The notes under the pieces are model-generated. The model was given only the letters and a program-made list of their open reading frames with translations, was not told where the DNA came from and ran no database searches. From Solirubrobacteraceae bacterium (GTDB taxonomy: Bacteria > Actinomycetota > Thermoleophilia > Solirubrobacterales > Solirubrobacteraceae): DNA of 64,000 nucleotides. The position numbers and the translations under genes were made by a program. The DNA lies in contig JAUJOT010000003.1 in the NCBI GenBank assembly GCA_030447505.1, positions 186,001 to 250,000 of the forward strand, read 5' to 3'. This document shows positions 2,909 to 6,104 of this stretch, one piece after another. Position 1 is the first letter of the stretch, and every line of letters starts with the position of its first letter.

Positions 2909-4135
2909 CTATGCCGACAGGCTTCCGACGTAGGCGTCCTGCACGAGTCCTCGCAGCGAGAAGCCACCCTCACCGATCGGCGAGTTCACGAACACGACGG
3001 CCTCCATGCCCGCCGGGAGGAAGAAAGCGACGCATTGCTCGGTCCCGATGCCGTTGCCCCACGCACCGTTCTTGTTGTACGTCTTGCCGGCCGGCGTGTC
3101 GATGATCTGGTCGATGCCGAACCCGCTGTCGAGCAGCGACTGCGCCTTTGACGCGGTCATGATGGTGCCCGTCCGACGCACGTGATGCATGACGTCGAGC
3201 ACCTCCTTACAGGACAGCCGGAACCCGGCGCCCCCCGACACGGTCGCCAGGTCGCCCGAGTTCCATCCGCCCTCATTCTTGTGAGGGTGCTTGTAGGCGA
3301 GGGCGCCGCCGGCCACCGAGGCGAAGCCTACGTTGTTCACGCGGGCCGGCGTGAAGACGTTGGCCTGCATGTAATTGCGGAAATGGTTGATCGTGAGGGC
3401 GTCCCAGATCTGGTCCTTGGCGAACTGCGGGAAGTCGGCATTCTTGCTGATCATGCCGGTCACAATCGGTATCAGGATCCGGCACAACCCGAAGTTCATG
3501 TTCTCGTAGTCGCCACCCGGCACCGCCGGTACGCCGGCGGCGACGCGCGCCTTCATGAAACCGTAGTCAGACGCGGAGCTGTTGCCCGAGAAGCCCGACC
3601 GGTGGGTCAGCAGGTGCCGGAACGTGATGTCGTCGACGTTGCTGCCTTTGCTCCAGTAGCTGGGGAGGTGGGGGGCGATCTTGGCGTCGTGCGAAATACC
3701 CTTGCTGTCCAGCGCCTTAACCATGCCCACGGCGGTGATGAACTTGCTGACGCTCGCAACGTGCATGCGCCGGTTCTCGTTCCAGCCCTGGCCGGCGTCG
3801 GCCGGCGTCTGCGACCAGTTCCAGATCCCGCTGTGCACCAGCGTCCCGTCCTTTCGCACCTGCAGCATGTAGCCGGTCACCGAGTCCTTCAGCGCGGTGT
3901 GCATGGCAAGCCCAAAGGCGGCGAGATCCGCCCTCGGTGTGAGCTTGAAGGTCTTGGGCCGAATGTCGAGCTTCAGCCGCTTCTCCTTGACGGGATCGAC
4001 CTGCTCGATGGTGACTCCCTGCACGTGCTTCGGCGCGACCACGTGAGACTTCACCTGGGCAGCCGTCACGCCGCGTGGAAGGTCCTTCGACGCGATTTTG
4101 ACGCTGCTGATGTCGCGCTGCTTAACCGTCGCCAT
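2909..4135 (-). CDS. Serine beta-lactamase-like hydrolase (class C/esterase fold)
   Basis: A 408-residue member of the PF00144 serine hydrolase family (class C beta-lactamase, D-peptidase, EstB-like). Visible motifs are SxxK as SVSK (Ser128, Lys131) in RRMHVASVSKF and the Tyr motif YEN (210-212). HLLTHRSGFSG, typical of the family, follows the first motif. There is no signal peptide or lipobox, so the protein looks cytoplasmic, which is unusual for a cell-wall enzyme and suits an esterase or amidase role. The N-terminal about 65 residues (KDLPRGVTAAQVKSHVV) fall outside the fold. The ATG at 4135 has GGAGG 8 nt upstream. The promoter carries two palindromes, listed separately. Confidence 0.82.
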   Translation of the reverse strand: MATVKQRDISSVKIASKDLPRGVTAAQVKSHVVAPKHVQGVTIEQVDPVKEKRLKLDIRPKTFKLTPRADLAAFGLAMHTALKDSVTGYMLQVRKDGTLVHSGIWNWSQTPADAGQGWNENRRMHVASVSKFITAVGMVKALDSKGISHDAKIAPHLPSYWSKGSNVDDITFRHLLTHRSGFSGNSSASDYGFMKARVAAGVPAVPGGDYENMNFGLCRILIPIVTGMISKNADFPQFAKDQIWDALTINHFRNYMQANVFTPARVNNVGFASVAGGALAYKHPHKNEGGWNSGDLATVSGGAGFRLSCKEVLDVMHHVRRTGTIMTASKAQSLLDSGFGIDQIIDTPAGKTYNKNGAWGNGIGTEQCVAFFLPAGMEAVVFVNSPIGEGGFSLRGLVQDAYVGSLSA

Positions 4136-4153
4136 TAGCCCTACCTCCGAACA

Positions 4154-4175
4154 GTTAGTGTGGAGGCACGCTAAC
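4154..4175. promoter_or_regulatory. Inverted repeat overlapping the serine hydrolase -10
   Basis: GTTAGTGTG (4154-4162), a 4-nt spacer, then CACGCTAAC (4167-4175); eight of nine pairs match. It overlaps a minus-strand TAGCGT hexamer (4168-4173) that would be the -10 of the serine hydrolase gene, with a start near 4161. A palindrome sitting on the -10 is the classic place for a repressor. TetR-type operators have this shape, but the regulator is not identified. Confidence 0.55.
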
Positions 4176-4194
4176 CGCTGGCAGGACGCGCGCT

Positions 4195-4210
4195 TGTGAC
4201 GTGCGTCACA
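4195..4210. promoter_or_regulatory. Perfect CRP/GlxR-type operator TGTGACGTGCGTCACA
   Basis: The sequence matches TGTGA-N6-TCACA exactly, the binding consensus of CRP and the actinobacterial GlxR/Crp proteins. Its centre (4202.5) is 41.5 bp upstream of the start expected from the TAGCGT hexamer, the class II activator position. It lies 60 bp before the serine hydrolase ATG. Confidence 0.7.
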
Positions 4211-4326
4211 CAGCGCGGCGGTTCGGCGATGACAGTTTGATAGGCGCGCATATCGAACTACGTACGCTGGAACATGCCGCGCCTACGAGAGGCGGGCAGT
4301 CTCTGACGGCGCCCACGAGAGCGCTC

Positions 4327-5033: not shown

Positions 5034-6104
5034 TTAGGCGGCTTGCCCGAACATGCCGGTCACCAGCTCGCGGCGGCTGTGGACGCCGAGCTTGTCGAAC
5101 ACCGACTTGAGGTGGTCCTTGACGGTGTAGGGAGAAATGAACATGCGCGCGGCGAGCTGCCGCGTGTCGAGCCCCTCGAGCACCAAGGCGACGAGTTCTC
5201 GCTCGCGGGCCGTGAGGCCATGGGCGCGAGCAACAAGCGAGAGTATGTCCTCAGCGCTGGCCCCGCGGACGCTGACCGCGATCGCGTTGGAGACACCGTC
5301 CATGCGGGCGGCCTCGATGATGGCCCACCGAGCCTCACTGGTCCGCACCCGCACGCGGGGCAGGCGTTGCGGATCATCGCCGGCCTCAGCGGCCAGCAAT
5401 CGTCCGACGAGGGAGTACACGTGCGTCGGGAGCGGGGTGTGGTCTGCCTTTTCCCGAGCCTTCAGGAGCGCGAACCAGTCCCGTGCCGGCTGCGTGAATC
5501 CTTGCGGCTGAAGGTCGTCGTCGATCAGCAGCACTCCGGTCTGGCCGGCGTCGATGCCGCGGTCGGCCGTCGCGCTGACGCTGGCCTGCCGCAGACGGCG
5601 CGCCAGGACCCGAGCAGCGTCGCGCATGAGCTGCACATCGTCGGCGTCGAATGTCGGCTCGTCGCTGGCGCGGTACACCTCAAAGGACGCCCAGCACCCG
5701 TAGTCGTCGACGACAGCAGCGCGCAGCTCATCGCCGACGCCGGCCGGCTGCGCACAGTCGCGCCAGCGGCCGGAGCGAGCAAGGTCGCGGTCGGTGGCGG
5801 CGCTCAGCACACAGACGTGGTCAGGGCGGCGCGCCAGCATCGCGCGGCTGTTGATCTCACCGCCGCTCTGATCCTGGACGAGGAGCCGCGGCAGACAGCT
5901 GCCGAACGGCAGCGCGTCCGATACGACCGGCCGGTGCGGGATCAGCGTGTCGGGGTCGACGAGTGGCGAGCACCACAGATCGAATCCGATCGCCTGGCGC
6001 AGATGGTCGATCGCCTCAAGCCTCAGCGAGTCGATGTCGAGCGTCGAGTCGGCGAGCAGCTCGAGCTGTTGCGTGCACCGGGAACGTACGCGCGCGGATC
6101 GCAC
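5034..6104 (-). CDS. LuxR-family transcriptional regulator
   Basis: A 356-residue regulator. The C-terminus is a LuxR/NarL helix-turn-helix (LTARERELVALVLEG, about residues 295-347, with RQLAARMFISPYTVKDHL as recognition region). The N-terminal about 170 residues look like a GAF-type sensory region, and the middle (TGVLLIDDDLQPQGFTQPAR) resembles a PAS segment. No phospho-acceptor receiver domain is visible, so it probably senses a ligand. The GTG at 6104 is supported by TATCCT 6 nt upstream. It is divergent from the cupin gene with 192 bp between, so the cupin is the likely target. Confidence 0.82.
   Translation of the reverse strand: MRSARVRSRCTQQLELLADSTLDIDSLRLEAIDHLRQAIGFDLWCSPLVDPDTLIPHRPVVSDALPFGSCLPRLLVQDQSGGEINSRAMLARRPDHVCVLSAATDRDLARSGRWRDCAQPAGVGDELRAAVVDDYGCWASFEVYRASDEPTFDADDVQLMRDAARVLARRLRQASVSATADRGIDAGQTGVLLIDDDLQPQGFTQPARDWFALLKAREKADHTPLPTHVYSLVGRLLAAEAGDDPQRLPRVRVRTSEARWAIIEAARMDGVSNAIAVSVRGASAEDILSLVARAHGLTARERELVALVLEGLDTRQLAARMFISPYTVKDHLKSVFDKLGVHSRRELVTGMFGQAA

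What the first reader, a model, noticed from the sequence alone, without database searches (positions are those of the whole stretch)
4154..4210. Serine hydrolase promoter with a perfect CRP box and an overlapping repressor-like palindrome
TGTGACGTGCGTCACA (4195-4210) is an exact TGTGA-N6-TCACA site. A minus-strand TAGCGT at 4168-4173 predicts transcription from about 4161, placing the box centre at -41.5, the class II activator position. A second palindrome (GTTAGTGTG-GAGG-CACGCTAAC, 4154-4175) covers that -10. Activation by a cAMP/CRP-type protein plus blocking by a repressor is the simplest reading. The target is a serine hydrolase without signal peptide. The two sites and spacing are visible; the regulator identities are inferred.
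Basis: partly seen in the sequence, partly recalled or inferred. Interest (0 to 1): 0.66.

Follow-up and report, generated by a model that had tools for sequence, protein, structure and literature searches.

The report
CRP-type promoter with two extra palindromes
The control region of a soil actinobacterium's serine hydrolase gene carries a textbook binding site for a CRP-type regulator at the classic activating position, plus two further palindromes that look like sites for unidentified regulators; the arrangement is ordinary, but it helps show that this little-studied bacterial order uses the CRP code.

Summary
TGTGACGTGCGTCACA (4195-4210) is exact, and the 22-bp palindrome at 4154-4175 (8 of 9 arm pairs) is where stated. 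The minus-strand TAGCGT at 4168-4173 is the only TANNNT on that strand in the 191-bp intergenic region, and it puts the box centre at -41.5. The host is a Solirubrobacteraceae actinobacterium. It encodes a single detected Crp/Fnr protein with a CRP-like recognition helix and at least one class III nucleotide cyclase, and its crp gene carries a conserved near-match to the site at its own start. Across the order, 78 of 115 distinct exact sites are intergenic against a 15.5% baseline, so the motif is a real regulatory signal there. A -10-like hexamer at class II spacing also recurs at other sites, with modest statistics. CRP-type control of the hydrolase is therefore well supported, and class II activation is likely but unproven. 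The repressor half is weaker. The palindrome covering the -10 is unique in the genome, no orthologue keeps it, and no cognate regulator was found. Corynebacterium GlxR with SugR/LldR at ldhA has the same logic. This is a new member of a known kind.

The parts
2909..4135 (-). Target gene: 408-aa serine hydrolase (Pfam Beta-lactamase PF00144; SVSK and YEN motifs), ATG start, no obvious signal peptide
   Evidence: no in-frame ATG/GTG/TTG upstream of this ATG; GC by codon position 0.58/0.44/0.89
4136..4326 (.). Intergenic control region between the hydrolase and the SEC-C gene, both on the minus strand (GC 0.634 against 0.72 for the window)
4144..4148 (-). Shine-Dalgarno GGAGG, 8 nt before the ATG
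   Evidence: sequence
4161..4161 (-). Predicted transcript start (inferred)
   Evidence: 12 nt downstream of the first base of TAGCGT; not measured
4168..4173 (-). -10-like hexamer TAGCGT (actinobacterial TANNNT form), first base 29.5 nt from the CRP box centre
   Evidence: only minus-strand TANNNT in the region; window rate 0.0004 per position; TAGCCT/TAGATT/TAGGCT recur upstream of crp orthologues
4154..4175 (.). Palindrome P2, GTTAGTGTG-GAGG-CACGCTAAC, covering the -10 and predicted start: putative operator
4195..4210 (.). CRP-type box TGTGACGTGCGTCACA, centre at -41.5 of the predicted start
4234..4259 (.).
   Evidence: nearest other genomic match has 3 mismatches
5034..6104 (-). LuxR-type regulator (GerE, PF00196) two genes upstream: nearest local candidate to bind P2 or P3 (speculative)
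   Evidence: no P2/P3 half-site copies in its own upstream region

Best explanation
The region is a Crp-dependent class II promoter of an accessory serine hydrolase gene. The host's single detected Crp-type protein binds 4195-4210, replaces the missing -35 element and recruits RNA polymerase to the TAGCGT -10, so transcription starts near 4161. One or two further, unidentified dimeric regulators are likely to bind the palindromes at 4154-4175 (over the -10 and start, so blocking) and 4234-4259 (upstream, sense unknown). Shown: the sequence elements, the real use of the TGTGA-N6-TCACA code in this order, and the presence of a fitting Crp. Inferred: binding at this site, activation, start site, and any role of the two other palindromes.
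For: Exact site. One detected cNMP-binding/HTH_Crp_2 protein, with GSSRESASR in the genome's protein and SRESASR kept in all 23 orthologues aligned; best PDB relatives include M. tuberculosis CRP. Class III cyclase domain present. crp carries TGTGCTATTGCTCACA just before its ATG, identical in the three nearest relatives and with one further change in the fourth. Order-wide, 78 of 115 exact sites are intergenic against 15.5% expected, p about 3e-36. Outside this window, TANNNT within 2 nt of the class II spacing occurs 7 times against 2.0 expected, p = 0.005. Only one TANNNT on the coding strand of the region, at exactly this spacing. No -35 consensus, as expected for an activator-dependent promoter.
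Against: No orthologous promoter exists to footprint: only 1 of the other 145 family genomes has a homologue of 45% identity, and its upstream region lacks the box. The class II spacing peak is not significant as an unguided scan (p = 0.095). The Crp protein has Ala at the adenine-contact threonine position (position assigned from memory of E. coli CRP), so cAMP dependence is uncertain. A Crp site near -40 can in principle also repress.
Confidence: 0.68

Rival explanations
1. Crp binds the box but represses the hydrolase, or acts from a start site other than 4161; the TAGCGT match is coincidental.
For: Only a -10-like hexamer supports 4161. Crp sites in this order lie at many distances from genes. 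M. tuberculosis CRP represses when bound near the start (PMC4117774).
Against: The only TANNNT of the strand lies at exactly the class II distance, with a good Shine-Dalgarno 8 nt before the ATG; class II spacing is the commonest spacing seen elsewhere, though weakly.
Confidence: 0.2
2. P2 and P3 are not operators. P2 owes part of its symmetry to two facing -10-like hexamers (TAGCGT minus, TAGTGT plus) or is an RNA hairpin in a longer leader whose CCUCC could pair with the Shine-Dalgarno; P3 is chance.
For: TAGTGT at 4156 on the plus strand. The 71-nt leader fold pairs the CCUCC of P2 with GGAGG, but only at z = -1.65. Each palindrome is unique in the genome. Each taken alone is only mildly unusual for this GC-rich window.
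Against: Three palindromes of this quality in 191 bp are rare (0 of 1000 shuffles, 2 of 672 windows). The minus-strand RNA hairpin has a C-A mismatch that weakens it. If transcription starts at 4161, most of P2 is not transcribed.
Confidence: 0.3
3. The exact CRP box is a chance match with no function.
For: About 0.5 exact sites are expected in the genome from base composition (own estimate); one of the three exact sites (L002) does not sit just before a gene.
Against: It lies in a promoter, not a gene. Intergenic enrichment is overwhelming across the order, and the genome's Crp is the matching type.
Confidence: 0.08

Closest known systems
Corynebacterium glutamicum ldhA promoter (GlxR activator, SugR over the -10, LldR over the -35; PMC7999487)
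   Same: Actinobacterial Crp-type activator on TGTGA-N6-TCACA upstream, with separate repressors over the core promoter
   Different: Regulators, effectors and activation are shown there; here the second and third regulators are unknown and the target is an unrelated hydrolase
Escherichia coli class II CRP promoters (galP1 type; PMC5449483)
   Same: Box overlapping the -35 position, centre at -41.5, no -35 consensus
   Different: GC-rich actinobacterial TAGNNT -10; start not mapped; cAMP dependence not tested
Mycobacterium tuberculosis CRP (Rv3676) regulon (PMC4117774)
   Same: Related protein (PDB 3d0s, 3i54 among the best matches); same palindromic code; upstream binding associated with activation
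   Different: Thr-Asn at the C-helix adenine position there, Ala-Asn here; different targets

Membership tests
Crp/GlxR-type binding site | TGTGA-N6-TCACA palindrome | tested here: met
   exact
Crp/GlxR-type binding site | Host encodes a Crp with matching recognition helix | tested here: met
   single cNMP_binding + HTH_Crp_2 protein with SRESASR helix
Crp/GlxR-type binding site | Motif used as a regulatory site in this clade | tested here: met
   78 of 115 exact sites intergenic against 15.5% baseline; conserved near-match at crp itself in nearest relatives
Crp/GlxR-type binding site | Conserved at orthologous promoters | tested here: inconclusive
   no close orthologue exists; the one 45% homologue lacks it
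Crp/GlxR-type binding site | Protein binds the DNA, cAMP-dependent | not testable with these tools
   needs EMSA or ChIP; cyclase domain present
Class II Crp-dependent promoter | Box centre near -41.5 of a -10 element, no -35 consensus | tested here: met
   TAGCGT 29.5 nt from box centre; no sigma-70 -35/-10 pair
Class II Crp-dependent promoter | Transcript start at the predicted base | not testable with these tools
   needs 5' RACE or Cappable-seq
TetR-type (or other dimeric repressor) operator over the -10 | Inverted repeat of about 15-26 bp overlapping the core promoter | tested here: met
   P2, 8 of 9 arm pairs
TetR-type (or other dimeric repressor) operator over the -10 | Cognate regulator gene adjacent or same operator at the regulator's own promoter | tested here: not met
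   no second copy in the genome; none in the region upstream of the nearby LuxR gene

The most novel reading that the evidence does not exclude
A three-operator integrating promoter: a Crp of Solirubrobacterales, perhaps with altered cAMP dependence (Ala at the adenine-contact position), acts as a class II activator and competes or cooperates with two unknown regulators bound at P2 and P3, to control an acquired intracellular class C beta-lactamase-like hydrolase.
Probability: 0.2. Interest if true: 0.35.

Novelty: new member of a known kind. Interest (0 to 1): 0.24.

Why it matters
The promoter itself is ordinary. What may matter more is the by-product: computed evidence that Solirubrobacterales, a widespread and little-studied soil order, uses the TGTGA-N6-TCACA code with a single detected Crp, with hints of autoregulation and of class II spacing. 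My one literature search on Solirubrobacter regulation found nothing on this.

Tried and rejected
Phylogenetic footprinting of the hydrolase promoter failed for lack of orthologues: genome contigs gave none, 146 family, 232 order and 396 phylum genomes gave at best one 45% homologue, and plasmids gave about 23% identity only. DNA similarity of the intergenic region in 146 genomes gave two short matches. L134 lies inside a coding region (kdpD-like by eye) and was rejected as chance. L133 (G066, upstream of an SDR gene) shares GTCACAAGCGCGC...GCGGTTAGCNTGCC but only half a CRP box; it was kept as a curiosity. P2-like pattern in viral contigs: two hits, not pursued. Terminator reading of P2 or P3: no terminator-like site. 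RNA structure of the leader: not significant. P3 elsewhere in the genome: none closer than 3 mismatches.

Full report
Observation. The window holds TGTGACGTGCGTCACA at 4195-4210 and GTTAGTGTG-GAGG-CACGCTAAC at 4154-4175 exactly as stated. They lie in the 191-bp gap (4136-4326) before a minus-strand gene, 2909-4135, which encodes a PF00144 serine hydrolase. Its ATG is preceded by GGAGG at 4144-4148 and there is no earlier in-frame start. The box is the only site with 0 or 1 mismatch in the window and one of three exact sites in the 3.84-Mb genome; about 0.5 would be expected from base composition (own estimate).

A third palindrome was missed. AGTTTGATAGGCGCGCATATCGAACT at 4234-4259 pairs at 11 of 13 positions and ranks tenth in the window on a composition-weighted scale; the CRP box and the second palindrome rank 61st and 82nd. 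Dinucleotide shuffles of the gap matched its third-best palindrome in 0 of 1000 trials, and 2 of 672 windows of 191 bp did so. So the cluster is unlikely to be chance, although any one member alone would be weak evidence. Both extra palindromes are single-copy in the genome.

Is the CRP reading right? The host is a member of Solirubrobacteraceae, judged by crp orthologues of up to 90% identity. It has one detected cNMP-binding protein with an HTH_Crp_2 domain. That protein is closest in the PDB to Crp-family regulators including M. tuberculosis CRP, and its recognition helix SRESASR is kept in all 23 orthologues aligned. At least one class III nucleotide cyclase domain is present. The crp gene has TGTGCTATTGCTCACA directly before its ATG. 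This is identical in the three nearest relatives and has one more change in the fourth, and another relative has a full 10-of-10 site there, which suggests autoregulation.

Order-wide use of the code. I collected 115 distinct exact sites from this genome and its relatives. 78 lie between predicted genes, against 15.5% of random positions in the same loci (binomial p about 3e-36). The gene prediction was a simple GC-by-codon-position method, so the figures are approximate, but the effect is far larger than any such error. Exact sites occur in 115 of 146 family genomes, while the reversed pattern rarely occurs.

Is it class II? TAGCGT at 4173-4168 is the only minus-strand TANNNT in the gap, and it lies 29.5 nt from the box centre, which gives -41.5. 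TAGNNT hexamers recur upstream of crp orthologues (TAGCCT 11 times, TAGATT twice, TAGGCT and TAGACT once each), about 0.36 TANNNT per 66 nt against 0.009 inside the genes; many of these sequences are related, so they are not independent. Around other oriented sites, TANNNT within 2 nt of this spacing occurs 7 times against 2.0 expected (p = 0.005), but the peak is not significant as an unguided scan (p = 0.095). No sigma-70 type -35/-10 pair exists in the region. Class II activation is thus likely but not shown.

The repressor half. P2 covers the proposed -10 and start, which is the usual place for a blocking repressor. In C. glutamicum ldhA, SugR covers the -10, LldR the -35, and GlxR activates from upstream (PMC7999487). 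But no cognate regulator or second operator copy was found, and orthologues that could show conservation do not exist. Part of P2's symmetry equals two facing -10-like hexamers. The identity TetR is not supported by anything specific. The nearest regulator gene is a LuxR type at 5034-6104 without P2 or P3 half-sites upstream of it.

Caveat on cAMP. In the alignment to M. tuberculosis CRP, the C-helix Thr-Asn reads Ala-Asn here. From memory this Thr contacts the adenine, so cAMP dependence needs a test.

Verdict. It is a new member of a known kind, with low to moderate interest. The order-wide Crp code is the more useful by-product.

Noticed in passing
   Followed up: partly
L005:1377-1400 (genome G000 C10:74481-74496): The genome's crp gene carries TGTGCTATTGCTCACA immediately before its ATG, conserved in the nearest relatives: likely autoregulation. 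Other orthologues keep a TAT or TAGNNT -10 close to the start, suggesting leaderless transcripts.
   Followed up: partly
L001:1501-1516 (G000 C9:56216): Another exact CRP box of this genome precedes what looks by eye like an S8 subtilisin-type protease whose reading frame appears broken.
   Followed up: no
L133:1501-1541 (genome G066): A relative has GTCACAAGCGCGC...GCGGTTAGCNTGCC, very like the core of this promoter (84% over 44 nt), just upstream of an SDR gene but with only half a CRP box.
   Followed up: partly
L118 (genome G020 C10:74805-75828): Four identical TGTGACAAAGATCACA sites within about 1 kb in one relative: perhaps a repeat array.
   Followed up: no
window 2909-4135: The hydrolase is an accessory gene (lower GC, no close orthologue in the family), so its promoter may have come with it or been wired into the host Crp regulon after arrival.
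   Followed up: partly
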